Notes under the pieces: generated by a model | What the model saw: only the letters and a program-made list of their open reading frames with translations | The model's database searches: none | What the model was told of the DNA's origin: nothing | In this document: piece by piece, positions 6,001 through 61,371 of the stretch | Numbering within the stretch: position 1 is the stretch's first letter | Layout: every line of letters begins with the position of its first letter | NCBI GenBank assembly: GCA_025526935.1 | Contig: JAHLKD010000050.1 | Span: 124,001-188,000 of the forward strand | DNA length: 64,000 nucleotides | Reading direction: 5' to 3' | Source: Cladochytrium replicatum | Lineage: Eukaryota > Chytridiomycota > Chytridiomycetes > Cladochytriales > Cladochytriaceae | Position numbers and translations under genes: made by a program

Positions 6001-9000
6001 CTTACTGCGTATGCTCGGAGAGATCAAGACAAAGAAGGCTTCGCTTGGTTATGACACTCGTCCCGCAGCAGTTATGCTTCCGTTATCACCAAACCATGGC
6101 ACTTTCGGAAGCGACGGTCTGTACGGCGAGTCAAAGATCGCTTTGGAGACACTCATGAACCGCTTCCATGCGGAAAGCTGGGGAAGCTACCTCACCATTA
6201 TCGGGGCATCCATTGGGTATGTCACAATTGGCTGTTCATCAAGATTGTTGTATTAATTAATTTTCATAGGTGGACTCGTGGTACTGGCTTGATGTCTGCC
6301 AACAACGTTATTTCAGAGGGCTTCGAAACCCTTGGTGCTAGAACTTTCTCCACCCACGAAATGGCGTTCAACTTGGTCGGTTTGCTTCACCCTGCGATCA
6401 TCCAAATGTCACAGACTGAGCCGGTTTGGGCGGACTTGAACGGAGGATTTCAATTCGTCCAGGATCTTAACAATGTGACCAGTAACTTGCGCCGTGAGCT
6501 GATGGAGACCGCAGAAGTTCGTCGTGCGGTGTCGCAAGAAGCAGATCTTGACCGAAAGGTTCTTGAGGGTCCGGTCACAAAGGATGCGGTCAATGTCACC
6601 CCTCGTGCAAACATGCGGTTCTCGTTCCCGGCTCTTCCGAAAGCACAGAAGCTCACTCACCTTCGCGGTCTCCTTGACTTGGAGAAAGTCATTGTCGTCA
6701 CTGGTTTTGGTGAAGTGGGACCATACGGTGGCTCTCGCACTCGCTGGGAACTTGAGGGGTATGGAGAGTTTTCGTTGGAAGGATGCATCGAAATGGCCTG
6801 GATCATGGGCTTCATCAAGTTCCACAACGGTCCGTTGAAGAACAAGAATGTTCCCCACTTCTCTGGTTGGGTTGACGCAGCCACCATGGAGCCAGTCAAG
6901 GATACTGATGTCAAGTCGAAATACGAAAAGCAGATCCTCGAGCACAGCGGTATCCGCTTGATCGAATCCGAGCTCTTCAACGGTTATGACCCCAACAAAA
7001 AGATGTTCATGCAAGAGGTGATCGTTACGACCGAGATGGCGCCGATTGAAGTGAGCAAAGAGGAGGCGGAGGCATTCAAGCTTCAGCACGGAGACGCCGC
7101 GTTTGTCGAGCAGCGTGATGATCAGTTCTTCGTGCGTCTTCGTAAGGGAGCCTCTCTTTACGTACCAAAGGCATTGCGCTTTGACCGCCTTGTTGCTGGG
7201 CAAATTCCAACTGGCTGGGATGCTCGCCGCTACGGTGTGCCCGACGACATCGTCAAGCAAGTCGATCCGATCACGCTTTACAGCTTGGTGGCAACGGTGG
7301 AAGCGTTGGTCACCTCCGGTGTGACTGACCCTTACGAGTTCTACCAGTACGTACACGTCACCGAGCTGGGAAACACGACTGGTGGTGGTATGGGTGGAAT
7401 GAGGTCTCTTCAGAAGATCTTCTTTGAACGCCAAATGGAGAAGCCGGTTCAAAACGATATCCTCCAAGAGAGCTTCATTAACACCATGCCAGCGTGGGTA
7501 AACATGCTCTTACTTTCTTCTTCTGGTCCGATCAAGACGCCAGTCGGTGCGTGCGCTACCGCTGCAGAGTCAGTCGATATTGCCGTTGAGACAATATTGT
7601 CTGGAAAAGCAAAAATCGTCATCTGCGGTGGTTACGACGACTTCCAGCAGGAAGGATCGTACGAGTTTGCAAACATGAAGGCTACTTCCAACTCCATTGA
7701 CGAATTTGCTCGTGGTCGTGAACCTTCGGATATGTGCCGACCGGCGTCAGACTCGCGTGCTGGGTTCATGGAGGCACAGGGTGCCGGTGTCCACGTTCTC
7801 ATGACCGCTGATCTGGCTATCCAGATGGGAGTGCCGATTCGTGCCATCGTCGCATGCACAAACACTGCAACAGACAAGAACGGCCGATCTGTGCCTGCTC
7901 CGGGTCAAGGCATTTTGACCACAGCTCGAGAGACCAAGACTGCCTACAAGAGCCCGCTGCTCAACTTCGAGTACCGTGCTAAGCGATTGCATCGCGAACG
8001 CGAGCACGTCAAGCAGTGGGTCGCGAAAGAGTACGAGGCTTTGGCCGATGAAGTGGATGAAATGAAGAACGCTGGCATCGAGGTGGATGAGTCGTTTGTG
8101 GCCGAACGAACAGTGTTCATCGAACGGGAGTGCTCCCGCAGGGTGAGTCTGGAGAGTCTGTCAAGTCATTGCGAAATTAATTCTTTTATGTTCACAGGAA
8201 AAGCAAGCGCTAGCTACTTGGAGCCATGACTGGTACAAGAGCGACCCGCACATTTCCCCACTCCGAGGTGCACTAGCCACTTTCGGCCTCACTGTTGACG
8301 ACATCGGTGTTGCATCGTTCCACGGCACTGGTACCAAGGCGAATGACTACAACGAGTCGTCGGTGTTCAACCAACAATTCGAACATCTCGGCCGTACTCC
8401 TGGAAATGTCTGCCCGGCAGTGTTCCAGAAGCACCTCACTGGGCACCCGAAAGGAGCTGCCGCAGCCTGGATGCTCAACGGCTGCTTGCAGATTCTCGAG
8501 TCGGGCCTCATTCCTGGAAATCGCAACTTGGACAACGTCGAGGATCGTCTCCACAAATTCAACTACATGCTCTACCCATCGCGCTCGATCCAGACCGACG
8601 GCGTAAAAGCTGCGTTGTTGAAGTCTTTCGGATTTGGTCAAGCCGGGGGTGAAGTCCTTTTGATTCACCCTGACTATGTGTTCGCTGCACTCAGTGAGGA
8701 GACCTACCGCAACTACGGCGTTCGTCGTGAGGCACGTCAGGTTGCGTCGTACCGTTATTTCCACGAAACTCTCACCGGATCCGCACCGTTTGTGCGAGTG
8801 AAGAATGCAGCTCCTTACACAGATGCACAGCAGGCATCCGTCTACCTCAACCCGCTCGCTCGTGCGTCATACGATCGCGCAACGAACACCTGGAGCTTCG
8901 CGAACACCAAGTCTGCGCGTAAGGCTCCCGATGTCGAGGTCACATCTGCGCTGGTCCAGAAAGCGCTTTCTGAGCACTGGAAGGATGCGAACGCAGCGGC

Positions 9001-11940: not shown

Positions 11941-11949
11941 AGTTCCCAG

Positions 11950-12120
11950 TAAGGCTCGGCGGGTCCAGGTTGGGTCCAGGTTTCAGTGGCGACCTGCGTG
12001 AAACCCTTTGTGTCAGGTCGTGCTTGTCCGCGCACCCGCCGGGTCTCTGACAGGTGCGAAGGGAATACCCGGACCCGAAGTGGTTGAAACCCGTACCCGA
12101 CCCTGACCCGCTGGTTTTTT
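11950..12120. repeat. Left terminal/subterminal repeat of locus 1 hAT element
   Basis: TAAGG terminus followed by a GGGTC/ACCCG-rich block to about 12,115. Closely matches 39,095-39,265 in the second element. Clustered short GC-rich motifs just inside the ends are typical binding platforms of hAT transposases. Confidence 0.75.
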
Positions 12121-12247
12121 GCTGCCCAGGAGAGGATTGATTGAACTTGAGTTAGCACACGGATATTTACATGAACACTTTGTGTCTGTGTGGACAGTGT
12201 GATATTTAAAACACTATCGTAAAGAGAAACAAAACTCCACTGAAAAA

Positions 12248-13913
12248 TCACAAGTTGATAGGTGGAACAGCCCAAATCAGCTTCTGTATCTGGTTCATAT
12301 TGTCAGAGTCCCATCCACCACTGGTTATGTCCTTCGCCAACCCAGTCCTGATGAACCGATCGATGTTGTCATTTGAAAGCATGAAATCCTTGGCTAAACC
12401 TGTCTTCCAAGGTTTCCAATCCACCTCAGGGAGTGTTATGGACGAAAGATGCCCGATATATGCCTTCCAGAACCTTAGCCACTCAGAAGGATATGCATCC
12501 ACTAATGCTCTGAACATGCAATAGATAGTGGCAGACGTACTTAGCGAGTTGTTGTGCCGTATCCAGGCACCCTAAGAAGAGTAAGGCTGCTCCGAGTACT
12601 GCTACTTGAAGTTGATGTTGGCTTGAGCGGTCGTCTGATTCAACAAATATGGGCCGTAAAAACTCATTTCGGTAGAGGACTTCGTAGTTTACGTTGACGT
12701 ACTTGATTGATGGTGGAAGAGACGGCAATTTAAGGTCATAAATAACCTCATTGATCTTATGCATCTGGAAGCAGATACCCTGGATGACCTCTTTCACCAA
12801 AAGGATAGCCGTACGACGGTGCTGCTGCAGGCTAAGCAATGCAAGGGAACTCGTTGGAGAACTGGTTTGATGTACCTTCGGAATTCTACCAATCCCCTTG
12901 ATAGCTGACGATATGCTTATTAGGCCGCCTGTTGATGTTGGCGCCACAGGTGCTGCAGCTTCTGAATGACCAGCCTGTCGTTTCAGAGCAGCAAGCTCTC
13001 CCTCCAGGGCGGTCACACGTGATTTCCATTGTGAAATCTCCTGGGAAGTTGCCTGCTTCTCCCTTTCCATTGCAGCGGTGATCTCCCTGAATTTTGCTAG
13101 CTCTTCGTGCTCGCCGCGCTGAATCAATGCACCCGCCCTGCCCAATTCATCAATGAGAGCCTTCTCTCGCACTTCTGCTGCGATGCGGGTCCTTCTCTCG
13201 TTCATTGCAGTCTCTTCAAGATCTTTTGTCATGTTCAACAGTCGTTCTGACTGTTTGGGGACCTGTTTTGCCCTTTCACGGTCCTCATCTGCTCGTTTGA
13301 TGGTCGCTTGGAACTTGTCAACCTTTGCAGTGACAGGCATTCCTCTGTAAATGCCGTACTTGTGTCCCTGCCGCCTGTAAAAGTCCAGAAATGTTGTTTC
13401 CTTCTGAAAGGAAGAGCTTTTCAAGCACTCCATACGATAGGCGTTTGCTGCTGTTATGAACTCCGTTCATCCACTGCATTCATCGTGAATTTCGTTCAGG
13501 GCTTGACGAACTAGCTTGCTGTCAGAGTTAAGCCGGTCGATCAACCCTTGAAGAACAAATCTTGGGCCGAATTCATCACGATTTGTTTGACAGTTGCTGA
13601 TGAAGTCCTCCGAGTCGTAGCTGTGGCCGCTTGCTTTGAATTTTCGATACCAAAGTCGTATGTCTGAAGCAGGACAGAGTCCGTCGATGAGCAAATAGTC
13701 AGCATCCCCTTTAGTACCACGTCGCGCCGGTTTCTTTGAAGGAGCTGTCGATTTGACATCTGTCGATTTGACATCAAGGCCAACTTCTGCTTCTTCCACT
13801 TCAGAACCCGATCCCAGAGATGTTTCAGGTGCAGTCACAGGTTCTGCACTTGATTCTCTTTCAGATGATGGTCTGGATTGTTTTAACGCTCGCTTCTTTG
13901 TAGTTCGAGGCAT
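12248..13913 (-). pseudogene. Broken copy of hAT-element accessory ORF
   Basis: Almost the same protein as the intact ORF at 39,388-41,175, starting MPRTTKKRALKQSRPSSER. After about 148 codons an in-frame TGA replaces the CGA arginine of the intact copy (just after CSG, near 13,467). Reading continues in frame through the coiled-coil segment. Near 12,610-12,580 an indel shifts the frame before the C-terminal segment resumes in 12,517-12,248. It has two DVKST repeats against nine in the intact copy. The function is unknown; it is not a transposase, because the hAT catalytic and hATC motifs sit in the separate gene at 15,010-17,303. Confidence 0.8.
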
Positions 13914-14055
13914 GGTGTTTGTACTGTTTGTCGTGGGAAGATACTGGCCCGGTGTTCTTAGCCGGAATGGTACAGGAATGTATGCTATAATACTTCCCTG
14001 ACACTATAGTTTTCTACCCGATCTGAAAATAAAAATAAGCTAGGGAAGAAACTGG

Positions 14056-14400
14056 CTAGTAACATTGATAGAGAGGATTCTGTCCGAGTGGACAGAATCT
14101 TATTGCTAGTAAAATTGATAGAGAGGTTAGCTGTACTTGATAGAGATCACTGAAGTACCGTAAATGAGTTGAGAAAGTGTCCGGGTGGACAGAATCGTAT
14201 TGCTAGTAACATTGATAGAGAGGTTAGTTGTATTGGATAGAGATCACTGAAGTACGGTCAATGAGTTGAGAAAGTGTCCGGGTGGACAGAATCGTATTGC
14301 TAGTAACATTGATAGAGAGGTTAGTTGTATTGGGTAGAGATCACTGAAGTACCGTCAATGAGTTGAGAAAGTGTCCGGGTGGACAGAAATCTGGGAGACT
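14056..14400. repeat. ~97 bp tandem repeat array A (direct orientation)
   Basis: About 3.5 units. Each contains the 14-bp imperfect palindrome TGTCCGGGTGGACA, then GAATC(T/G)TATTGCTAGTAA, a GATAGAGAGGTTAG block, GTAGAGATCACTGAAGTAC and CAATGAGTTGAGAAA. The same unit recurs in arrays B, C and D. Confidence 0.9.
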
Positions 14401-14430
14401 GAGTGTCACTGTGTCTGTCTGGGTAGAATA

Positions 14431-14960
14431 GGATTCTGTCCCCCCGGACACTTTCTCAACTCATTGACGGTACTTCAGTGATCTCTATCAAGTACAGCTA
14501 ACCTCTCTATCAATTTTACTAGCAATACGATTCTGTCCACCCGGACACTTTCTCAACTCATTGACGGCGGTACTTCAGTAATCTCTACCCAATACAACTA
14601 ACCTCTCTATCAATTTTACTAGCAATACGATTCTGTCCACCCGGACACTTTCTCAACTCATTGACGGCGGTACTTCAGTAATCTCTACCCAATACAACTA
14701 ACCTCTCTATCAATGTTACTAGCAATACGATTCTGTCCACCCGGACACTTTCTCAACTCATTTACGGTACTTCAGTGATCTCTATCAAGTACAGCTAACC
14801 TCCTTAATAATGTTACTAGCAATAAGATTCTGTCCACCCGGACACTTTCTCAACTCATTGACGGTACTTCACTGATACTTCACTGATCTCGATCAAGTAC
14901 AACCAACCTCTCTACAAATACTACTCGCAATAGGATTCTGTCCAGGCGGTCGCTTTCTCA
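14431..14960. repeat. ~97 bp tandem repeat array B (inverted relative to array A)
   Basis: The same unit in reverse complement (GATTCTGTCCACCCGGACAC, TTTCTCAACTCATTGACGG), about five copies that diverge toward the transposase. Arrays A and B face each other across a ~30 bp spacer and could fold into a hairpin several hundred bases long. Confidence 0.9.
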
Positions 14961-15009
14961 ACTCTGGACGGTACTTCAACAGATGAACAGTCTAAACAAC
15001 AATTTATAT

Positions 15010-17303
15010 TTAAAAGAGTGGGTTATCATCAGTTGATTCCAACTCTAATACCACATCAAAATCCTCGCCAAAATTATGCACCCTTACAAAATCCTCACTA
15101 ACATCACTTTTTGAATCTAGGGAATCATTTTTGAACGGTTCTTCAGCACTCAATTGATGCAACCAGTCATGACGGCACATCAACGCATTTATTGTTCTTG
15201 GAGCAAGGCGGTTGCGAGTTGCAGATACCAAATCAACCCAGGCTGAAAACTTTCGTTTGACTGGAGCGCTTGTTGCTGGTATTCCTAAATAGTCCATTGC
15301 CATCTGGCTTAGGGCTGGAAAGTTCACACTTCCAACGGTCTTCCACCAGTCCATAATATTGATTGGCTTCCCATCAGAATCAATACCGCGGAGTACCTGA
15401 TTGCCAAGATAGTGATCCAGCTCATCTTTTTCCTCAGGAATCTCTTCTTGCCAGATGAAAACGGATCTAATGGCTCTCAAGCGTTCAGCGTCTGTTTTTT
15501 TCTGTCTATCACCGGAAGCTCCGCTCGAATCGTGTCGACGTTCTGGCATGTTTCCAAAAACATCGGCACCACTGTTCTTGATTTTCCGTGACTTACACGA
15601 TTCCTCCCAGACTTTCCGCACTAGGGTGACCTGATCTCTTCCTACATCTTTCTCCCAAGCCTTTGAAAATCGATATATTGATCCTTAAAACGAGGATCGA
15701 GTACTGTAGCAACTGCTAAACACGGGCTCTTAGCGATTGAGTAATATATTCTCAGCTTATCTAGTGCATTTCGAAATGCTTTGGTGAAAGTTTCATCCAA
15801 TTCTGCCTCCTCTAGGTCCTCCAAATGATCGATCAGATCGTTGTAAAATGGAATAACAAGCGGAAGTGTTGGATATCTAGACCCCTCGATTGCCTTTGAT
15901 ATAACCTCGAAAACACTCAAACCATCCCGGATCTTCTGTAGAACCTCCCATTGCTTTGGATTTATTGACCAATCTTTCAAAGAATCTTCAATCCAGCATA
16001 TTTTGTCCATTGCCTCTCGTAGCTGTAAGGCTCGTTTGACCATATAGAACGTGCTATACCAGCGAGTTGTCACATCGATAATTGGTAATAGAGGAACCAG
16101 TTTCACAAATCGGCACGAATCAATAAATGAGCTTCGTCATTTTGGGGAAGACCGGATTCCTCTGACTAACCGTCGAAGAAGGTTTATGACATTAACGCCG
16201 GAGTTATCGTCATTTGCGACTGTGTCCCCTGCGGGCGCGAATGTATCGATAAAATCCTTTGCCGCAAGATTGATAATGTGTGCCATACACTGCATGTGTT
16301 GAGTTTCTGCAGACCACGCAATATCCCTATCTTCCAAGAGCGTCTCCAGCTTAGCACTCATGGTAAAGTTGTTTGAACCGTTGTCGGTTGTAATGCACAA
16401 TAAGCGTTCACCCGATAGCATGCCAAATTCATCCAGACACCTGACAAGCTGACTAGCCATGGCGACGCCTTCATGCTTTCCAACCATCGGAATCATCTGC
16501 AGCAGCAAGTCCTGCGGCTCCCATTCTTTCGTGATGAAGTGGGCAGTAATTCCAAGAAAAGAAATCTGGTTCTTCGATGTCCAACAGTCAGCTGTTATTG
16601 ATACTTTTGAAGGCGAACCAACAATCAGACCTTTAACGAGCTCCTTCTGCCTATCGTAAAGATCCATCTCATTTTGCTTCACTGCTTTTGCCGTCTTTGG
16701 TGTATAGTTTGGCTGAAAAGTCTTCAGCATGCTGACAAAGAACTCGTTCTCCACAACAGTAAAAGCCTGATTGTCTGCAGCAATCCAGTCCAAAATCGAC
16801 CGCCACACTACGTCTGGATTGAACACAAAGTTTTGCTCCTTCTCCTGCGAGCCAAAATTCAATGTCTGTTGTCCCTTGGGGACGATGTCCAACAGTCCAA
16901 GCGACCTGGCAATACTTCCATGGTGGTTTTTCAGATGCCAGAGGAAGTTTTTTGTTGATCCCGTCTTATCGACCTTCTGGCTCCACTTGCATTTCGCAAC
17001 CAAACATGTTCTCAGACCATTATCAACCTTATAGTAATCCTTTGCTATGCCGCCTCGACTACCTCTACAGTCCGACATGCTATCAACATCTGCGTCTGAT
17101 GAAAGCATTGATGGTTGAACTGATCCAGCTGCAGGCTCCTGTCGCACTGAAGAGTCAGCAAAACTAACATCGGCAGGAAGCTCTGGTGCATGCTGAGAAG
17201 CCAGGCCCAACTCGCTGGAGTCATTGGAAGAAGATGTGGAGCTCGGCTCTCGAGCGCTGTTGTTGCCACCGTGTCCTGATACACGTCTGCGTTTGTCCTG
17301 CAT
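15010..17303 (-). pseudogene. hAT family transposase, broken copy 1
   Basis: A near-complete hAT transposase of ~764 codons. From the N terminus: a Ser-rich tail, a BED-type zinc finger (CLVAKCKWSQ... HLKNHH), the N-terminal part of the catalytic core (ITADCWTSKNQISFLGITAHF), TTDNGSNN, CMAHIINLAAKDF, then VTTRWYSTF, DPRFKDQY, and the C-terminal hATC dimerisation segment (WWKTVGSVNFPALSQMAMDY then RNRLAPRTINALMCRHDWL). It would cut and paste the element using the terminal repeats. Two lesions are visible: an in-frame TGA at about 16,139-16,137, likely from CGA, and a 1-nt deletion near 15,665 after DPRFKDQY. It lies inside the locus 1 element between arrays B and C. Confidence 0.9.
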
Positions 17304-17567
17304 GCTGTTCCCCTCGCTGGACGCCTCTGAAATTTGGGGGGCTGGCAGACTTCACTTCTGTGTGTCAAGCGGATGACTGTCCACCAGTCTTTGGCTTGCG
17401 TCGGACGCTGCCTTAAGCTTTGATTTAACGAAGGCGGCGTCCATTTTTGCTGTGGTGTGGCTGGAACGTTACCGACTCTAAGTGTCCAGGTGCACAGAAA
17501 GCACAGCTCTCGAGGTCTGTCGTGGTAGAAATTGTTTGTTACAGAACTTCCGTTGTGACTTCTTGGA

Positions 17568-18262
17568 AAGTGTCCGGGTGGACAGAATTGTATTGCCAGT
17601 AACATTGATAGAGGTTAGTTGTACTGGGTAGAGATAACTGAAGTACGTCAATGAGTTGAGAAAGTGTCAGGGTGGACAGAATCCTATTGCTAGTAACATT
17701 GATAGAGAGGTTAGTTGTATTGGGTAGAGATAACTGAAGTACGTCAATGAGTTCAGAAAGTGTCCAGGTGGACAGAATCTTATTGCTAGTAACATTGATA
17801 GAGATGTTAGTTTGTACTTGATAGAGATCACTCAAGTACCGTCAATGAGTTAAGAAAGTGTCCGGGTGGGACAGAATCTTATTGCTAGTAACAGTGATAG
17901 AGAGGTTAGCTGTACTTGATAGAGATCACTCAAGTACCGTCAATGAGTTGAGAAAGTGTCCAGGTGGACAGAATTTATTGCTAGTAACATTGATAGAGAT
18001 GTTAGTTGTACTTGATAGAGATCACTCAAGTACCGTCAATGAGTTAAGAAAGTGTCCGGGTGGACAGAATCTTATTGCTAGTAACATTGATAGAGAGGTT
18101 AGTTGTACTTGATAGAGATCACTCAAGTACCATCAATCAGTTAAGAAAGTGTCCGGGTGGACAGAATCTTATTGCTAGTAACATTGATAGAGAGGTTAGT
18201 TGTATTGGGTAGAGATAACTGAAGTACGTCAATAAGTTGAGAAAGTGTCCGGGTGGACAGAA
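17568..18262. repeat. ~97 bp tandem repeat array C (direct orientation)
   Basis: About seven units of the TGTCCGGGTGGACA repeat upstream of the transposase start. The preceding 17,480-17,567 segment is a diverged unit. The array runs into the same right-end block (ACAGAAAATACATGCCTCG...) that ends the second element. Confidence 0.9.
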
Positions 18263-18374
18263 AATACATGCCTCGATGTCTGTTGTGATGCAAAATTGTT
18301 TGATACATACTAAACTTATATTGCGTCTTCTTGGAAAGTGTCCGCGTGGACAGAAAGAACAATAGCTTCGTTTT

Positions 18375-18562
18375 AGCTTCTCTATCACATCGGGTTTTAC
18401 TCAGGTCTGACTTTTGACCCGAGAAGGGTTTTCCTACTGGACCCGATACCCGACCCGAACCCGACCCAAAAATTTTCCATGAAAACCCGGCACTCGGGTC
18501 GGGTACATTTGGTCAATGGACCCGGACCCGACCCGAAAGACCCTAAAACCCGCGGATCCTTA
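18375..18562. repeat. Right terminal/subterminal repeat of locus 1 hAT element
   Basis: A block dense in ACCCG/GACCCG motifs ending GATCCTTA. Nearly identical to 41,880-42,052. In reverse complement it starts TAAGGATC, pairing with the left end. Confidence 0.8.
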
Positions 18563-20345
18563 TCCTGGACAGTACTTCAAAAGATGAACAGTCTAAACAA
18601 CAATTTATATTGAAAAGATTTGGGTTGTCATCAGTTACTTCCTACTCTAATACCACATCAAAATCCTCACCAAAATTATGCACCTTTACAAAATCCTCAC
18701 TAATATCACTTTTTGAATCTAGGGAATCAGTTTTGAACGGTTCTTCAGCACTCAATTGATGCAACCAGTCATGACGGCACATCAACGCATTTATTGTTCT
18801 TGGAGCAAGGCGATTGCAAGTTGCAGGTACCAAATCAACCCCAGCTGAAAACTTTCGTTCAACTGGACAGCTTGTTGCTGGTTTTCCTAAATAGTCCATT
18901 GCCATCTGGCTTAGGGCTGGAAAGTTCACACTTCCGACGGTCTTCCACCAGTCCATAATATTGATTGGCTTCCCATCAGAATCAATACCGCGGAGTACCT
19001 GATTGCCAAGATAGCGATCCAGTTCATCTTTTTCCTCAGGAATCTCTTCTTGCCAGATGAAAACGGATCTAATGGCTCTAAAGCGTCCCGCGTCCGTTTT
19101 TTTCTGTCTTACACCAGACGCTCCACTCAAATCGTGTCGACAATCTGGCATGTTTCCATTCTTGATTTTCCGTGACTTACACAATTCCTCCCAGACTTTC
19201 CGCACTAGGGTGACCTGATCTCTTCCTACATCTTTCTCCAAGCCTTTGAAAATCGATAATATTGATCCTTGAAACAAGGATCGGGTACTGTAGCAACTGC
19301 TAAACACGGGCTCTTAGCGATTGAGTAATATATTCTCAGCTTATCTAGTGCATTTAGAAATGCTTTGGTGAAAGTTTCATCCAATTCTGCCTCCTCTAGG
19401 TCCTCCAAATGATCGATCAGATCGTTGTAAAATGGAATAACAAGCGGAAGTGTTGGATATCTAGACCCCTCGATTGCCTTTGATATAACCTCGAAAACAC
19501 TCAAACCATCCCGGATCTTCTGTAGGACTTCCCATTGCTTTGGATTTATTGACCAATCTTTCAAAGAATCTTCAATCCAGCATATTTTGTCCATTGCCTC
19601 TCGTAGCTGTAAGGCTTGTTTGACCGTGCTATACCAGCGAGTTGTCACATCGATAATTGGTAATAGAGGAACCAGTTTCGCTGCAAGATTGATAATGTGT
19701 GCCATACACGGCATGTGTTGAGTTTCTGCAGACCACGCATCTTCCAATAGCGTCTCCAGCTTAGCACTCATAGTAAAATTGTTTGAACCGTTGTCGGTTG
19801 TAATGCACAATAAGCGTTCACCCAATAGCATGCCAAATTCATCCAGACACTTTACAAGGTGATAAGCTATGGCGACTCCTTCATGCTTTCCAACCATCGG
19901 AATCATCTGCAGCAGCAAGTCCTGGAGCTCCCATTCTTTCGTGATGAACAAGGAAAGAAATCTGGTTCTTTGATGTCCAACAGTTAGCTGCTATTGATAC
20001 TTTTGAAGGCCAACCAACAATCAGACCTTTAACGAGCTCCTTCTGCCTATCGTAAAGATCCACCTCATTTTGCTTCACTGCTTTTGCCGTCTTTGGTGTA
20101 TAGTTTGGCTGAAAAGTCTTCAGCATGCTGACAAAGAACTCGTTCTCCACAACAGTAAAAGCCTGATTGTCTGCAGCAATCCAGTCCAAAATCGACCGCC
20201 ACACTACGTGAAGCCGGGCCCAACTCGCTGGAGTGATTGGAAGAAGATGTGGTCGGCTTTCGAGCGCTGTTGTTGCCACCGTGTCCTGATATATGTCTGT
20301 GTTTGTCCTGCATGCTGTTCCCCCTCGCTTGATGCCTCTCGGAAA
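18563..20345 (-). pseudogene. hAT transposase, broken and deleted copy 2
   Basis: Homologous to 14,965-17,340, beginning right at the end of the locus 1 element (CTGGACAGTACTTCAA here, CTGGACGGTACTTCAA in copy 1). The hATC end, the VTTRWYST region, TTDNGSNN and the mid-core are recognisable. The BED-finger segment is missing (about 400 bp lost at ~20,208), and a further ~165 bp are missing near 19,680. Several frames are used. At the site where copy 1 has lost one base after DPRFKDQY, this copy keeps that base but lacks another 10-20 bases on. The two copies therefore decayed independently from an intact ancestor. Confidence 0.85.
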
Positions 20346-21060
20346 TTTGGGGGGCACTTTGTCAAGAATATAAGATCCTTTCGTCATCATCACTGCAAGT
20401 TCTACATTCAAATTCAAAACGGCAAGTGAAAAAAGCGGACGATTCTGATAACGAATGTGGAAGTAATTACAAATGTGACTAGTTCTACTTGTCCACTTAC
20501 AATGTCCCATCTCACATACTGTGATCTGCTCCTTTAAAAAGCAAGAATGAGTGCAAGTGAACGTGTCAGAGAACCTCAATCATCCCAGGAACTTTGAGTT
20601 AGAACAGTACGACTTTGATAGGGTCGTGCTTACTGCTTAGTGCTTGCCATAGTTGCCTCCCATTTCTTTGTTGTATACTTGGGATCATTGACATTATTAT
20701 CAATAACTAACTCAAGTTCTTTCTTCATTTTGGATGTAACAGGCATTCCATCTACGTAGTAAACTTCCCGCTTGGACACAATATGCTGCAACATTCAATC
20801 TCTTAGCACCCCTCTAGTGATTGATGCCCCGTGATCCAGTTCAATGCAGGGGAGCCTACTTGACGTGTTGAGCCAGGAGTAGAATTTTCTCCCCCCCCCC
20901 CCCCCCCCACACACAGTCACAAACAAGACCTCATATTACAGCAACCATACACATCAGAGTAAAGCGGAGGGCAGCGCCAGAATATGCACCATTGTACCTG
21001 CCTATGGCAGATTTCAGCTATTTAGTCCCCTGTGATCTGGAGAAATAACAAAATGCGCCT
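20346..21060. other. No intact gene; poly-C tract
   Basis: Contains an 18-base C run at 20,891-20,908 followed by a short AC repeat. A minus-strand frame at about 20,780-20,630 reads KREVYYVDGMPVTSK then KKELELVIDNN before a stop. Its GMPVTSK resembles GMPVTAK of the accessory ORF, but the match is too short to assign. Confidence 0.4.
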
Positions 21061-39086: not shown

Positions 39087-39094
39087 GTGTCTAC
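39087..39094. repeat. 8-bp target site duplication, left copy
   Basis: GTGTCTAC immediately before the TAAGG terminus; repeated at 42,053-42,060. Confidence 0.9.
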
Positions 39095-39387
39095 TAAGGT
39101 TCGGCGGGTCCGGGTCGGGTCCGGGTTTCAGTGGTGACCCACACCAAACCCTTTGGGTCGGGTCGTGTTTGTCTGGGGACCCGCCGGGTCACTGACGGGT
39201 ACAAAGGGAATACCTGAACCCGAAGTGGTTGAAACCTGTACCTGACCCTGACCCGCCCGGTTTTTGCTGCCCAGGAGAGGATTGATTGAATTTTGAGTTA
39301 GACCACGGATATTTACATGAATACTTTGTGTCTGTGTGGACAGTGTGTATTTTAGAAACACTATCGTAAAAAGGAACAAAACTCCAA

Positions 39388-41175
39388 TCACAAGTTGATA
39401 GGTGGAACAGCCCAAATCAGCTTCTGTATCTGGTTCATATCGTCAGTGTCCCATCCACCACTGGTTACGTCCTTCGCCAACCCAGTCCTGATGAACCGAT
39501 CAATGTCGTCATTTGAAAGCATGAAATCCTTGGCTAAACCTGTCTTCCAAGGTTTCCAATCCACCTCAGGGAGCGTTATGTACGAAAGATGCCCGATGTA
39601 TGCCGTCCAGAACCTTAGCCACTCAGAAGGATAAGCATCCACTAATGCCCTGAACATGCGATAGATAGTGGCAGACGTACTTAGCGAATTATTGTGCCGT
39701 ATCCAGTTTCCGAGCAAAATGTGCACCCTAAGAAGAGTAAGGCTGCTCCAAGCACTGCTACTTGAAGTTGATATTCGGCTTGAGCGGTTGTCTGATTCAA
39801 CAAATATGGGCCGTAAAAACTCATTTTGGGAGAGGACTTCGTAGTTTACGTTGACGTACTTGATTGATGGTGGAAGAGACGGCAATTTAAGGTCATAAAT
39901 AACCTCATTGATCTTATGCATCTGGAAGCAGATACCCTGGATGACCTCTTTCACCAAAAGGATAGCCGTACGATGGTGCTGCTGCAGGCTAAGCAATGCA
40001 AGGGAACTCGTTGGAGAACTGGTTCGATGTAGCTTCGGAATTCTACCAATACCCTTGATAGCCGACGATATGCTTATTAGGCCGCCTGTTGATGTTGGCG
40101 CCGCAGGTGCTGCAGCTTCTGAATGACCAGCCTGTCGTTTCAGAGCAGCAAGCTCTCCCTCCAGGGCGGTCACACGTGATTTCCATTGTGAAATCTCCTG
40201 GGTAGTTGCCTGCTTCTCCCTTTCCATTGCAGCGGTGATCTCCCTGAATCTTGCTAGCTCTTCGTGCTCGCCATGCTGAATCAATGCACCCGCCCTGCCC
40301 AATTCATCAATGAGAGCCTTCTCTCGCACTTCTGCTGCGATGCGGGTCCTTCTCTCGTTCATTGCAGTCTCTTCAAGATCTTTTGTCATGTTCAACAGTC
40401 GTTCTGACTGTTTGGGGACCTGTTTTGTCCTTTCACGGTCCTCATCTGCTCGTTTGATGGTCGCTTGGAACTTGTCAACCTTTGCAGTGACAGGCATTCC
40501 TCTGTAAATGCCGTACTTGTGTCCCTGCCGCCTGTAAAAGTCCAGAAATGTTGTTTCCTTCTGAAAGGAAGAGCTTTTCAAGCACTCCATACAATAGGCG
40601 TTTGCTGCTGTTATGAACTCCGTTCGTCCACTGCATTCATCGTGAATTTCGTTCAGGGCTTGACGAACTAGCTTGCTGTCAGAGTTAAGTCGGTCGATCA
40701 ACCCTTGAAGAACAAATCTTGGGCCGCATTCATCACGATTTGTTTGACAGTTGCTGATGAAGTCCTCCGAGTCGTAGCTGTGGCCGCTTGCTTTGAATTT
40801 TCGATACCAAAGTCGTATGTCTGAAGCAGGACAGAGTCCGTCGATGAGCAAATAGTCAGCATCCCCTTTAGTACCACGTCGCGCCGGTTTCTTTGAAGGA
40901 GCTGTCGATTTGACATCTGTCGATTTGACATCTGTCGATTTGACATCTGTCGATTTGACATCTGTCGATTTGACATCTGTCGATTTGACATCTGTCGATT
41001 TGACATCTGTCGATTTGACATCTGTCGATTTGACATCAAGGCCAACTTCTGCTTCTTCCACTTCAGAACCCGATCCCAGAGATGTTTCAGGTGCAGTCAC
41101 AGGGTCTGCACTTGATTCTCTTTCAGATGATGGTCTGGATTGTTTTAACGCTCGCTTCTTTGTAGTTCGAGGCAT
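39388..41175 (-). CDS. Intact accessory protein of hAT-like element, 595 aa, function unknown
   Basis: Single open frame from ATG at 41,175. Residues 1-45 are basic/Ser-rich and acidic (MPRTTKKRALKQ; GSGSEVEEAEVG). About 47-91 are nine tandem DVKST pentapeptides. A basic patch (SKKPARRGTK) and a globular-looking segment (LLIDGLCPASDIRLWYRKF; FVLQGLIDRLNSDSKLV) follow. From about 235 to 355 runs a long charged helix, probably coiled coil (ATIKRADEDRERTKQVPKQ; EMEREKQATTQE-like). The C-terminal third is hydrophobic-patterned with many Trp (WTAYIGHLSY, PEVDWKPWKTGL, GGWDTDDMNQIQKLIWAVPP). It has no BED finger, hAT core or hATC motif. I recognise no family. A role in transposition (DNA binding, target choice, regulation) is only inference from its retention in both elements. 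Confidence 0.75.
   Translation of the reverse strand: MPRTTKKRALKQSRPSSERESSADPVTAPETSLGSGSEVEEAEVGLDVKSTDVKSTDVKSTDVKSTDVKSTDVKSTDVKSTDVKSTDVKSTAPSKKPARRGTKGDADYLLIDGLCPASDIRLWYRKFKASGHSYDSEDFISNCQTNRDECGPRFVLQGLIDRLNSDSKLVRQALNEIHDECSGRTEFITAANAYCMECLKSSSFQKETTFLDFYRRQGHKYGIYRGMPVTAKVDKFQATIKRADEDRERTKQVPKQSERLLNMTKDLEETAMNERRTRIAAEVREKALIDELGRAGALIQHGEHEELARFREITAAMEREKQATTQEISQWKSRVTALEGELAALKRQAGHSEAAAPAAPTSTGGLISISSAIKGIGRIPKLHRTSSPTSSLALLSLQQHHRTAILLVKEVIQGICFQMHKINEVIYDLKLPSLPPSIKYVNVNYEVLSQNEFLRPIFVESDNRSSRISTSSSSAWSSLTLLRVHILLGNWIRHNNSLSTSATIYRMFRALVDAYPSEWLRFWTAYIGHLSYITLPEVDWKPWKTGLAKDFMLSNDDIDRFIRTGLAKDVTSGGWDTDDMNQIQKLIWAVPPINL
40903..41037. repeat. 15-bp minisatellite, 9 perfect units, inside accessory ORF
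   Basis: Unit TGTCGATTTGACATC, nine head-to-tail copies with no mismatch, coding on the minus strand for DVKST. Locus 1 has only two units (13,746-13,775). Confidence 0.97.
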
Positions 41176-41317
41176 GGTGTTTGTACTGTTTGTCGTGGGA
41201 AGATACTGGCCCGGTGTTCTTAGCCGGAATGTTACAGGAATGTATGCTATAATACTTCCCTGACACTATAGTTTTCTACCCGATCTGAAAATAATAATAA
41301 GCTAGGGAAGAAACTGG

Positions 41318-41752
41318 CTAGTAACATTGATAGAGAGGATTCTGTCCGGGTGGACAGAATCTTATTGCTAGTAAAATTGATAGAGAGGTTAGCTGTACTT
41401 GATAGAGATCACTGAAGTACCGTCAATGAGTTGAGAAAGTGTCCGGGTGGACAGAATCCTATTGCTAGTAACATTGATAGAGAGGTTAGTTCTATTGGGT
41501 AGAGATCACTGAAGTACCGCCGTCAATGAGTTGAGAAAGTATCCGGGTGGACAGAATCGTATTGCTAGTAACATTGATAGAGAGGTTAGTTGTACTGGGT
41601 AGAGATAACTGAAGTACGTCAATGAGTTGAGAAAGTGTCCGGGTGGACAGAATCCTATTGCTAGTAACATTGATAGAGAGGTTAGTTCTATTGGGTAGAG
41701 ATCACTGAAGTACCGCCGTCAATGAGTTGAGAAAGTGTCCGGGTGGACAGAA
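41318..41752. repeat. ~97 bp tandem repeat array D
   Basis: About four units of the TGTCCGGGTGGACA repeat in the same orientation as arrays A and C, upstream of the accessory ORF start. Some units carry a CCGCCGTC variant in place of CCGTC. Confidence 0.9.
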
Positions 41753-41879
41753 AATACATGCCTCGATGTCTGTTGTGATGCAAAATTGTTTGATACATAC
41801 AAAACTTATATTGCGTCTTCTTGGAAAGTGTCCGCGTGGACAGAAAGAACAATAGCTTCGTTTTAGCTTCTCTATCACA

Positions 41880-42052
41880 TCGGGTTTTACTCGGGTCTGA
41901 CTTTTGACTCGAGAAGGGTTTTCCTACTGGACCCGATACCCGACCCGGACCCGACCCGAAAATTTTCCATGAAAACCTGGCACTCGGGTCGGGTACATTT
42001 GGTCAATGGACCCGGACCCGACCCGAAAGACCCTAAAACCCGCCGATCCTTA
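41880..42052. repeat. Right terminal/subterminal repeat of locus 2 hAT element
   Basis: Dense ACCCG/GACCCG motifs ending CCGATCCTTA; matches 18,375-18,562. Confidence 0.85.
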
Positions 42053-42060
42053 GTGTCTAC
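42053..42060. repeat. 8-bp target site duplication, right copy
   Basis: GTGTCTAC directly after the element, identical to 39,087-39,094. Confidence 0.9.
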
Positions 42061-58811: not shown

Positions 58812-60467
58812 CTAACACGAAGCTACAGAGGCGCTCAATGGTGGTCGCATTGAACGACTTGAAGAGGAAGATCCGACTCCCTTCCGCCCACTCGAAAGGA
58901 CGGCCTGAGGTAAAGGTAGGCCATACGCACTAGCTACCTCAACAGTTCGTGCTACACCGATTCCACCTGAGATAATACACCCATCCTGAAAACCTACATC
59001 ATCATTTTTGGAGCTTATTTTGGTTGAACGAGCACTCGAGGGAGCAGAGGATCGAGCTGATTTGCGCTCCTGAGCAACATTTGATGAAGACGTGTGGGTG
59101 GATCCAGGTCTACTACGACTTCGTGCGGTGCGCGGCCGTCCATTCAAATCACCAGAAACCGAACGTGGGAAGCTCTGCACCAGTTCGCCCTTGTTTTCCG
59201 CTTTCGCTGCTTCACTTGATGGATCATTCACCACTCCGCTTTTGGCGCTTGCTCGAGTTGTTTGCGTACGACTTGCTCGGAAAGTGGAGGTCGATCTCTC
59301 AAATGTACTGTTACGAATTGAGTTTGATCGTTCAACAGAACCATGGCGCAGAGATTGCTGACGTGAGTTGGCAGCCGTTGATAGCCTGGAAGACCAGTCA
59401 TCCGCCCTCTTCAGTGGGTCGTCACCCATTTCCTTCAGAATTCGTCTGTATGTGGATGGATACATAGCAATATTGAACAAGTACTCCAAGTTCTTCTGCC
59501 GATCAGATAATGCCTTTTCTCGTGAATAGTTAGGAGGTTTGTCTTCAAGCCTCTGCAGTATTGTCTTCAAAGATGTTCAGAGTCGGCTCAGCAATCAGTG
59601 GTTTACAGAACTTACGAGATTTTCGATCGCAATATTCTCTAAGTCGTGCTGCCGTTTGGGGTTCGAAAGATGGGCAGGTATTTCCGGAAGACCTTTGTTA
59701 TCAGAGTCAAGGGCAGAAAGTTTGACTTTCGCATTTGTCATCTGGTACGCAATACGGTCCAAGAGAATGCGATTACTGTGCTGAATGGACGCCCTGCAAT
59801 CTAATTTTTTCCGATGCAACTTCAACATTTTGAATTTAAAAAGTGAAGAACCGTTACCTTCATCGTTTTGCAACCTGCGCAATCGAAGCTCCAAATGCGG
59901 GTATGACTTGGGAGGGGAATTATCTATAGCTGAACGAGCACTATCAATCTTTTGAAGGTGTAGCTGTCGTGCACTACTCTCCCAACGTAGCGCGAGAAGT
60001 TTACTACATGTTGGGTGAAATGGGAGGAAGTGTCTGTGCGAGAAGTTTGGTGGTTTGCGCGGTTCGAAAGATGCCGTTTTAGGCCGCCTTTGCACATCTG
60101 TCTTGCGGTGAAATACTTTAGTCGGCGTATTTTCTGATAGCTGCACTATTTCGTTGGCGAAGGACTCCTCAGCAGCAACTGAGACGCTGTCGTTCAATTC
60201 TGAACTGGTCCAACTTGAGCCTTTATAGGTGGGGAAGCTCGCCCAGCTATCCATTGGAACACCGGATTTTGAAGAGTTGGCCTTTCCCTCTGAACTTATT
60301 TCGATGATCCCCAAATTCTCTTCAGATGTGGAGAGATCTAACCCTCCCGCTGTTGTATCGTTCGTCATTCGCCGACCATTTTGATTTGCTGCATGAGGCC
60401 TTTTCTTAGAACTGAATTTGCTTGCACTATTGCTCCTCTCGGTGCTCCCAACACTAGGTACTTCCAT
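58812..60467 (-). CDS. CFAP97: Cilia/flagella-associated protein 97 (hemingway family)
   Basis: Two exons, 60,467-59,616 and 59,564-58,812, joined by a GT-AG intron, give 534 residues. The conserved KIAA1430/CFAP97 region spans the splice: SYPHLELRLRRLQNDEGNGS, LKLHRKKLDCRASIQHSNRI, LLDRIAYQMT, NPKRQHDLENIAIENL, then TILQRLEDKPPNYSREKALS. Flanking regions are Ser/Arg rich and low in complexity (SRSRPGSTHTSSS). CFAP97 is tied to axoneme assembly and motility, so the organism very probably has flagellated cells. The start is uncertain: the frame is open further upstream to about 60,632, but that overlaps the divergent plus-strand locus; 60,467 leaves ~80 bp between starts. Confidence 0.75.
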
Positions 60468-60546
60468 ATGAATTGGGGAAACACGAAGAGCGCGCACTCC
60501 CGTGATTATCAATACTTCCTTTTTGGGACCATTCAACCAAAAGTCC
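60468..60546. promoter_or_regulatory. Putative short bidirectional promoter
   Basis: About 79 bp between the chosen CFAP97 start (minus) and the start of the plus-strand acidic locus at 60,547. Inferred from the divergent layout only; no motif assigned. Confidence 0.25.
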
Positions 60547-61371
60547 ATGAACTTTATGAATGCGATCTTCGAACTTGCGAAGATGAAACCATTCGAGAAG
60601 TCGGCTCCGACGGACCAGCGAGATCTCTCCAAATTTATGGTCGATGTCAGAGCTTGTCTTGAAGCCGATCCTTCACTCGCAGACTACGGTTCCGGATTAT
60701 GCACCATATCCTACCAACTATCTTTACTGCTGCACTTAAGGAATACAGAGATTCCGATGCTGGGCGGCTGGAACTCATGGAGGGATCAGGATATTCTGCT
60801 GGGCACCTTCGGAAGTTTCGTGAATTGTTTCTCAACAAGGACAAAGTGCCTAGTTTGGCCGCACCATTAGCGGAAGGGATCAATGACGCTAAGAAGAAAT
60901 TTAATGATCATGAATCTGATGACTGATGACGGAGATAGCGAGATTGAAAATCCGAGGCTCAGAAGCTCGAGCTTCGAGAAATACTTGAATCCGACAGCGA
61001 AGAGCACAAAAACAGTGATGAAGATGCACACATTGGCGGAGACATGGATTCAGTGATCGATGAAGGTGATGAGAACGCTAGTGATGACGAAGCAAACGAC
61101 AGCGAAACCGAAAGTCTGAACATAGACAGCGAGGATGAGAGTGAACATATTCAACCGAGATAGCGACGAGAGCGAGCTTGTGAATCGAGATACCGAGGAT
61201 GAAAGCGAACTCATAAACCGGGACAGCGAAGACGAAGCTGACGACTCAGAAGATTATGGGAGAGTGGCATTCGAGGACCTGTCCTCTAATGAAGATGAAC
61301 CGAGTTCGAAACATAGGGATCCGAAAACAAAAGTGCAAGATCCGAGAATAATCTTAGAAGGAAGTGGATGA
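60547..61371 (+). pseudogene. Acidic protein locus, frame changes several times
   Basis: Starts MNFMNAIFELAKMKPFEKSA and continues DLSKFMVDVRACLEADPSLA. Near 60,690 the coding-like frame moves to HHILPTIFTAALKEYRDSDA, HLRKFRELFLNKDKVPSLAA and ends HESDD. Further frames give DGDSEIENP, REILESDSEEHKNSDEDAHI, DEANDSETESLNIDSEDESE and, from 61,135, SELVNRDTEDESELINRDSE through to a stop at 61,371. Acidic Ser/Asp/Glu coding is kept across at least four frame changes without splice signals. No family recognised. Confidence 0.45.

What the first reader, a model, noticed from the sequence alone, without database searches (positions are those of the whole stretch)
39095..42052. hAT-like family that carries an unrelated 595-aa accessory protein and keeps it when the transposase is lost
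Seen: two loci share termini, GGGTC-rich subterminal blocks, ~97 bp repeats and a second ORF. Locus 1 (11,950-18,562) also has a hAT transposase; locus 2 does not, yet its accessory ORF is fully open, with perfect 8-bp duplications. Non-autonomous hAT derivatives usually lose all coding capacity. Retention of a non-transposase ORF suggests it is useful to the element (DNA binding, target choice, transposase partner, silencing evasion) or that it is cargo. I know of no described protein like it.
Basis: partly seen in the sequence, partly recalled or inferred. Interest (0 to 1): 0.85.

Follow-up and report, generated by a model that had tools for sequence, protein, structure and literature searches.

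The report
Two-gene hAT transposon with partner protein
A jumping gene whose ends occur at nearly 300 places in this genome carries, besides its cutting enzyme, a second gene for a protein we could not match to any family; selection has kept that gene working in the family, but the copy in this window probably keeps it only because repeats inside the element tend to delete the enzyme gene alone.

Summary
The observation at 39,095-42,052 is right: a 2,958-bp element with TAAGG ends, a perfect 8-bp duplication, ~97-bp repeats and an open 595-aa ORF, without transposase. It belongs to a young two-gene hAT family (277 left and 299 right ends). One 7,303-bp copy encodes an 811-aa hAT transposase and a 560-aa accessory protein, which matched no Pfam family above cut-off and no PDB chain. 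Old relics show purifying selection on the accessory ORF in the active lineage (80 S / 100 N / 7 stop; neutral 50/127/10; true frame only). Retention in transposase-less copies is no sign of use there: 3 of 6 recognised copies are open, private changes of the 4 aligned look neutral, and in 5 of 6 only repeats of the orientation found before both genes remain, as recombination between those arrays would leave. The mirror derivative exists. Best mechanism (inferred): the accessory protein binds the 97-bp repeats, working like TnpA of CACTA or VANC of VANDAL elements. C-to-T changes concentrate at CpG (75 of 98), so methylation pressure is likely. New variant of a known kind.

The parts
39087..39094 (.). 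Target site duplication, left in window (GTGTCTAC)
   Evidence: sequence; matched flanks
39095..39387 (-). Right-terminal region of the element: TAAGGTTCGGCGGGTCC end and GGGTC-rich subterminal block
39388..41175 (-). Accessory ORF, 595 aa (560 aa in 23 of 30 copies read): N-terminus with KSTDV repeats, helical part, two long predicted helices at residues 254-300 and 305-351, helical C-terminus; no Pfam match above cut-off, no PDB match
   Evidence: model of low confidence outside the long helices
40900..41031 (-). 15-bp minisatellite coding for KSTDV repeats, expanded in this copy
41343..41752 (-). 97-bp repeat array; by best matches its first units come from the left array and its last from the accessory-proximal array, so the transposase deletion lies in it
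41753..42052 (-). Left-terminal region: TAAGGATCGGCGGGTTTTAGGGTC end and GGGTC-rich subterminal block
42053..42060 (.). Target site duplication, right in window (GTGTCTAC)
   Evidence: sequence
11950..18562 (-). Locus 1: related element with both genes, both broken; no matching target duplication
15010..17303 (-). hAT transposase of locus 1, split into frames of 388, 154 and 203 aa
   Evidence: PF05699 in 15010-15621
12240..13913 (-). Accessory gene of locus 1, broken (34 substitutions and 17 gap positions against the family majority)
14064..14972 (.). Intergenic 97-bp repeat arrays of locus 1, in two opposed orientations
17554..18270 (.). Left 97-bp repeat array of locus 1, upstream of the transposase

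Best explanation
Locus 2 is an internal-deletion derivative of a young two-gene hAT family. SHOWN: full members (about 6-8 kb) have TAAGG ends, 8-bp duplications in part of the copies, an 811-aa hAT transposase and, downstream on the same strand, a ~560-aa accessory protein; arrays of a 97-bp unit with the core GTCCGGGTGGAC lie before each gene and after the transposase. The accessory ORF was under purifying selection in the active lineage. INFERRED from best matches of repeat units: locus 2 and most of its like arose by recombination between the left array and the same-orientation array just before the accessory gene, which takes out the transposase and leaves the accessory gene; the retained ORF then drifts. 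INFERRED: the accessory protein is the second, trans-acting protein of the element; it dimerises through its long helices and binds the 97-bp repeats, to keep the element's promoters active under CpG methylation and/or to help assemble the ends, as VANC or TnpA do for their elements. My split: two-gene family 0.95; accessory constrained 0.85; array recombination as the usual deletion route 0.75 (lowered because C79 does not fit); binding to the 97-bp repeats 0.45.
For: Two genes. Of 50 transposase C-termini in stop-free frames of at least 784 codons (150 scored), 23 have an accessory frame of at least 574 codons within 6 kb downstream, 14 a broken one, 13 none scored. Transposase: PF05699 1.9e-20, Hermes chains 8.7e-13. 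Constraint: held with CpG sites excluded or stratified; old transposase pieces give 0.65 and 0.72 on fewer changes. Deletion: 5 of 6 TPase-less copies keep only one repeat orientation; unit matches. Unit number varies: 43 of 47 transposase-accessory spacings lie within 8 bp of 1038 + 97k, 8.2 expected. CpG: 75 of 98 transitions at C, base share 21%; five PF00145 stretches in the genome. VANC targets are tandem repeats in noncoding parts that contract and expand (PMC10398659, passages). TNPA is a 67-kd protein that binds subterminal repeats; such proteins share little sequence (PMC2613891, passages).
Against: No recognisable DNA-binding domain; both structure models are poor (mean pLDDT 45.0 and 40.1), so no fold comparison was made. 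No expression or binding data. The right end has no 97-bp array, unlike a symmetric TnpA layout. The selection signal rests on two relics (L055, L029); L011 alone shows none, locus 1 is not significant (0.74, P 0.22), nor are private changes of the other young copies (17 S / 26 N / 1 stop, 0.68, P 0.08). C79 does not fit the array-recombination route. 7 of 18 transposase-bearing end pairs lack matching duplications, and so do the C14 copy and locus 1, so some copies are recombinant or misassembled. Repeated broken accessory frames suggest the gene is not needed in cis.
Confidence: 0.6

Rival explanations
1. The accessory protein is a partner of the transposase that works by protein contact (transpososome subunit, target choice), and the 97-bp repeats are bound by the transposase or by host factors.
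For: Constraint of the same order as that of the transposase and the long predicted helices would fit; the Ac transposase of maize itself binds subterminal repeats (PMC3260210, passages).
Against: The right end lacks the array while both gene starts have it, which points to gene control rather than end binding.
Confidence: 0.25
2. The accessory gene is cargo or a captured host gene that serves the host, and its conservation reflects host function.
For: It has no Pfam or PDB match; hAT-like units with other genes exist (PMC6737239, passages).
Against: 25 of the 30 accessory loci read have the element's right end at the expected place, and no solitary host copy was recognised. The searches score only the best candidates, so a distant host homologue is not excluded.
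Confidence: 0.1
3. The accessory protein is a self-limiting repressor, and TPase-less copies spread because they make repressor.
For: TPase-less copies with an open ORF exist (3 of 6) and duplications are perfect in 5 of 5 testable ones.
Against: Private changes of the 4 aligned TPase-less copies look neutral (5 S / 19 N / 1 stop, ratio 1.49); half of the 6 have stops; array lengths differ in all 6, so none was seen as a plain repeat of another.
Confidence: 0.1
4. The ORF in TPase-less copies is kept by selection on those copies.
For: The window ORF is fully open over 595 codons.
Against: 26 differences from the C14 copy, 8 S / 18 N / 0 stop against 6.6 / 17.9 / 1.5; no stop is expected in about one neutral copy in five (P 0.21). 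The C79, C127 and C53 TPase-less copies carry stops.
Confidence: 0.04

Closest known systems
hAT7 elements of Puccinia with a TET/JBP gene (PMC12730594; abstract, outline and passages seen)
   Same: hAT transposase plus a second, non-transposase gene; proposed role in escape from methylation silencing
   Different: 7-bp duplications and a TET/JBP dioxygenase; here 8 bp and a protein with no such Pfam match, placed downstream of the transposase
VANDAL/VANC of Arabidopsis (PMC10398659; passages seen)
   Same: Accessory protein, tandem repeats in noncoding parts that expand and contract, methylation pressure
   Different: Another transposon superfamily (Mutator-like, recalled); no homology found; anti-silencing not tested here
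En/Spm (CACTA) TnpA plus TnpD (PMC2613891; passages seen)
   Same: Two-protein element; TnpA is of similar size (67 kd) and binds subterminal repeats; TnpA-like proteins share little sequence
   Different: CACTA transposase; here the right end lacks the array and further arrays stand between the genes
Ac/Ds and Ds-del derivatives of maize (PMC3260210; passages seen)
   Same: hAT, 8-bp duplications, subterminal repeats, internal deletion derivatives
   Different: Ac encodes a transposase only, as described there
ToxhAT of wheat pathogens (PMC6737239; passages seen)
   Same: hAT-like unit with non-transposase genes
   Different: 14.3-kb unit without identifiable target duplications and with other gene types; not a high-copy two-gene element

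Membership tests
hAT superfamily | hAT C-terminal dimerisation domain in the transposase | tested here: met
   PF05699 1.9e-20; Hermes chains 8.7e-13 over that region
hAT superfamily | 8-bp target site duplication | tested here: met
   5 of 5 testable TPase-less copies and 11 of 18 transposase-bearing end pairs; the C14 copy and locus 1 do not match
hAT superfamily | Short terminal inverted repeats | tested here: met
   TAAGG(A/T)TCGGCGGGT at both ends
hAT superfamily | RNase H-like catalytic fold | tested here: inconclusive
   PF14372 at 24 bits, cut-off 27; catalytic residues not assigned by a call
TET-bearing hAT7 | TET/JBP dioxygenase and 7-bp duplication | tested here: not met
   No such Pfam match in the accessory protein; 8-bp duplications
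VANC of VANDAL | Homology of the accessory protein to a described family | tested here: not met
   No Pfam match above cut-off
VANC of VANDAL | Tandem repeats in noncoding parts that vary in unit number | tested here: met
VANC of VANDAL | Sequence-specific loss of methylation on the element | not testable with these tools
   needs bisulfite or nanopore data
TnpA of CACTA | Encoded by an element with a CACTA transposase | tested here: not met
   transposase is hAT
TnpA of CACTA | Second element protein that binds repeats near the ends | not testable with these tools
   repeats present; binding needs an assay
Ds-del type deletion derivative | Both ends kept, internal part deleted, transposase lost | tested here: met
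   Both ends seen in C50, C79, C10, C11 and C53; C127 left end only

The most novel reading that the evidence does not exclude
A hAT family that has evolved a private two-protein system: a protein family not seen elsewhere that reads a 97-bp repeat placed before both element genes and keeps the element expressed against CpG methylation, a hAT counterpart of VANDAL/VANC, with repeat arrays that both serve as its target and generate transposase-less derivatives.
Probability: 0.3. Interest if true: 0.7.

Novelty: new variant of a known kind. Interest (0 to 1): 0.5.

Why it matters
hAT elements are generally taken to need one protein (general knowledge); this family has kept a second one under selection while its ends spread to nearly 300 places. 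If the protein binds the repeats, it would be a hAT case of element-encoded, sequence-specific control or anti-silencing, with natural variants (both genes, transposase only, accessory only) in one genome in which to test it. It also shows why an open ORF in a defective copy is poor evidence of use: repeat layout and youth can explain it.

Tried and rejected
Homologues elsewhere: genome contigs and viral contigs gave none; these hold prokaryotes and viruses, so absence from eukaryotes is not shown. Structure models were poor, so no fold search was run. A ribosomal RNA search to place the host failed twice for machine reasons. A DNA search with the left 300 bp scored only 40 of 612 candidates and was little use. 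Searches with two old accessory relics found no near kin of either among the 40 places scored in each. N/S among young copies has little power (singletons 20 S / 29 N / 3 stop, ratio 0.62; shared in 2-16 copies 11 S / 12 N / 2 stop, ratio 0.5, P 0.07), so old relics were used. Considered and rejected: selection on TPase-less copies; a single spreading TPase-less lineage (array lengths differ in all six; in the weakly supported tree the C50 copy groups with L018 and locus 1, the C79 copy with L025, all of which keep transposase sequence). Literature searches for a hAT with a comparable second protein; for TnpA; they cover only the open-licence library. Of the papers cited I saw passages and one abstract with outline; of the others only listings.

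Rows left out: the selection test used accessory or transposase DNA matches of at least 120 bp and under 94.5% identity (cut-off chosen after seeing the list), which gave 3 accessory matches (L055, L029, L011) and 4 transposase matches from 2 sources (three pieces of the window copy at 18.6-20.4 kb, and L019). L053 and L038, divergent at the protein level, did not enter by that rule. Locus 1 and young copies were tested apart. The 30 accessory loci read are the best-scoring ones and so lean towards intact copies.
Full report
WHAT IS THERE. The finding is real. Locus 2 runs 39,095-42,052 (2,958 bp), begins TAAGG and ends CCTTA, and is flanked by GTGTCTAC on both sides. It holds one ORF of 595 aa on the minus strand (39,388-41,175) and no transposase. 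Locus 1 (11,950-18,562) shares its kind of ends and repeats. It holds a hAT transposase (PF05699 1.5e-19 in its last frame) and the accessory gene, but both are broken, and its flanks do not match.

THE FAMILY. The genome holds 277 left ends and 299 right ends at up to 2 mismatches; the reversed control patterns gave 0. One copy, put together from three overlapping stretches of contig C14, is 7,303 bp and encodes an 811-aa transposase followed on the same strand by a 560-aa accessory protein. The transposase matches the hAT dimerisation domain (1.9e-20) and Hermes (8.7e-13). Of 150 accessory C-termini scored (of 658 candidates), 61 lie in frames of at least 574 codons between stops; 94 of the 150 have a listed transposase within 6.5 kb upstream and 56 do not. 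Of 50 transposase C-termini in stop-free frames of at least 784 codons (150 scored of 496 candidates), 23 have such an accessory frame within 6 kb downstream, 14 a broken one and 13 none scored; of the other 100 the numbers are 20, 28 and 52. A place not scored is not a gene absent: only the best candidates are scored. Duplications match in 11 of 18 transposase-bearing end pairs (4 of 9, 7 of 9); the C14 copy and locus 1 do not match. The mismatches point to recombination between copies, wrong pairing of ends or misassembly, which I did not resolve.

THE REPEATS. In the C14 copy the core of the 97-bp unit occurs 8 times in one orientation between the left end and the transposase, 13 times in the other orientation after the transposase, and twice in the first orientation just before the accessory gene. 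Unit number varies among copies: 43 of 47 transposase-to-accessory spacings lie within 8 bp of 1038 + 97k (anchor taken from the list itself), against 8.2 expected. No core was found between the accessory gene and the right end of that copy.

WHY THE ACCESSORY GENE STAYS WHEN THE TRANSPOSASE IS LOST. Six TPase-less copies were recognised by a left end shortly before the accessory gene: C50 (locus 2), C79, C10, C11, C127 and C53. This is not a complete survey. Five of the six (all but C79) hold repeat cores of one orientation only, the one that stands before both genes in the full element. In C50, C11, C10 and C127, and with more scatter in C53, the best matches of successive 97-bp blocks pass from left-end or left-array units to the units just before the accessory gene; because units are so alike, the exact joint is uncertain. 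Recombination between these two same-orientation arrays would take out the transposase and the opposed array and must leave the accessory gene. C79 is different: it passes from the left array to the stretch just after the transposase and keeps two units of the opposed orientation, so it needs another kind of deletion. Five of five testable copies (not C127, whose right end was not found) have perfect duplications. These could have been made by a full element that lost its transposase later, so they do not prove movement of TPase-less copies. Three of the six ORFs are open (C50, C10, C11) and three carry stops (C79, C127, C53). Private changes in the four aligned copies (C50, C79, C10, C11) are 5 S / 19 N / 1 stop, against a neutral 6.6 / 16.8 / 1.6. 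The window copy alone shows 8 S / 18 N / 0 stop against the C14 copy, neutral 6.6 / 17.9 / 1.5. The mirror case exists: on C24 an element with an open transposase frame has lost the start of the accessory gene. Equal broken frame lengths recur (211 codons at 5 places, 347 at 4, 396 at 3, 415 at 7). I checked only that L026 and L028 both end after codon 348. If the breaks are the same, elements with a broken accessory gene also multiplied, presumably helped by intact copies.

IS THE ACCESSORY GENE UNDER SELECTION AT ALL? Young copies are too alike to tell. Three old relics met by chance (L055 79% identical, L029 91%, L011 83%) were compared with the current gene. Pooled: 80 S / 100 N / 7 stop, neutral expectation 50.3 / 126.5 / 10.2, no shuffle of 2,000 reaching 80. 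Read in the two wrong frames the same changes give ratios of 1.39 and 1.57. Without CpG sites the result holds (59 S against 38.4), and with CpG strata the ratio is 0.51. L055 and L029 are significant alone; L011, with 12 changes, is not. The transposase, tested on 4 matches from 2 old sources, gives 0.65 (P 0.018) or 0.72 with CpG strata (P 0.047); the two genes were not tested against each other. Because a relic itself decays neutrally, the active lineage must have been constrained more than the ratio shows. Locus 1, younger, gives 0.74 (P 0.22).

WHAT THE PROTEIN IS. Pfam gives only weak matches below cut-off, mostly to coiled-coil families; the PDB gives nothing better than E 0.46. Single-sequence models are poor (mean pLDDT 45.0 and 40.1). 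The only fairly confident stretch (block means 67-82, residues about 258-347) is in two long helices at residues 254-300 and 305-351, which I read as a coiled coil. An N-terminal basic stretch could be a nuclear signal (my reading, from no call). No relative was found in genome contigs or viral contigs.

SILENCING PRESSURE. Among rare changes in accessory copies (34 sequences; changes present in at most 3), 75 of 98 transitions at C lie in CpG, where 21% of C stand (P 4e-32). Descent shared among copies makes this P value too small, but the excess is large. It is the usual mark of methylated CpG. Five stretches of the genome match the C5 DNA methylase family over its cut-off. Methylation itself was not observed.

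MECHANISM. The data ask for a second, trans-acting element protein that is conserved like the transposase, with repeat arrays before both genes that change in number, in a genome that appears to methylate the element. TnpA of En/Spm (67 kd, binds subterminal repeats, shares little sequence with its counterparts; PMC2613891) and VANC of VANDAL (binds tandem repeats in noncoding parts; PMC10398659) are what it most resembles in working. It is a member of neither: the transposase is hAT and no homology was found. Binding to the repeats is an inference, which I put at 0.45.

NOVELTY. A second gene in a hAT element is not new as such: twenty TET-bearing hAT7 families are described from six Puccinia species (PMC12730594). 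A hAT with this kind of protein did not turn up in searches of the open-licence library. I file it as a new variant of a known kind.

Noticed in passing
window 18565-20355 (-): A second, older and decayed copy of the hAT transposase directly abuts locus 1 (90-93% DNA identity to the current gene in three pieces).
   Followed up: partly
window 11942-11949 and 18563-18570: Locus 1 flanks do not form a target duplication, so locus 1 may be a recombinant between copies.
   Followed up: no
window 40900-41031: 15-bp coding minisatellite (KSTDV) strongly expanded in the locus 2 accessory ORF compared with other copies read.
   Followed up: partly
L041/L008 (contig C14) and L070/L071 (contig C58): The left flank of the C14 element (TTCCGGTC) equals the target duplication of the C58 element, and 7 of 18 transposase-bearing end pairs lack matching duplications: recombination or misassembly among near-identical copies.
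   Followed up: no
accessory gene copies, contigs C31, C13, C137: Pairs of accessory copies in opposed orientation about 5-7 kb apart at three places, as if elements insert into or next to each other.
   Followed up: no
window 98-8229 (+) and 59595-60632 (-): Fungal-type fatty acid synthase domains and a CFAP97 (flagellar) domain; together they suggest a flagellated fungus or fungus-like host, which was not confirmed.
   Followed up: no
G000 contig C140:40675-41019: A C5 DNA methylase stretch lies in an open frame of 1,414 aa.
   Followed up: no
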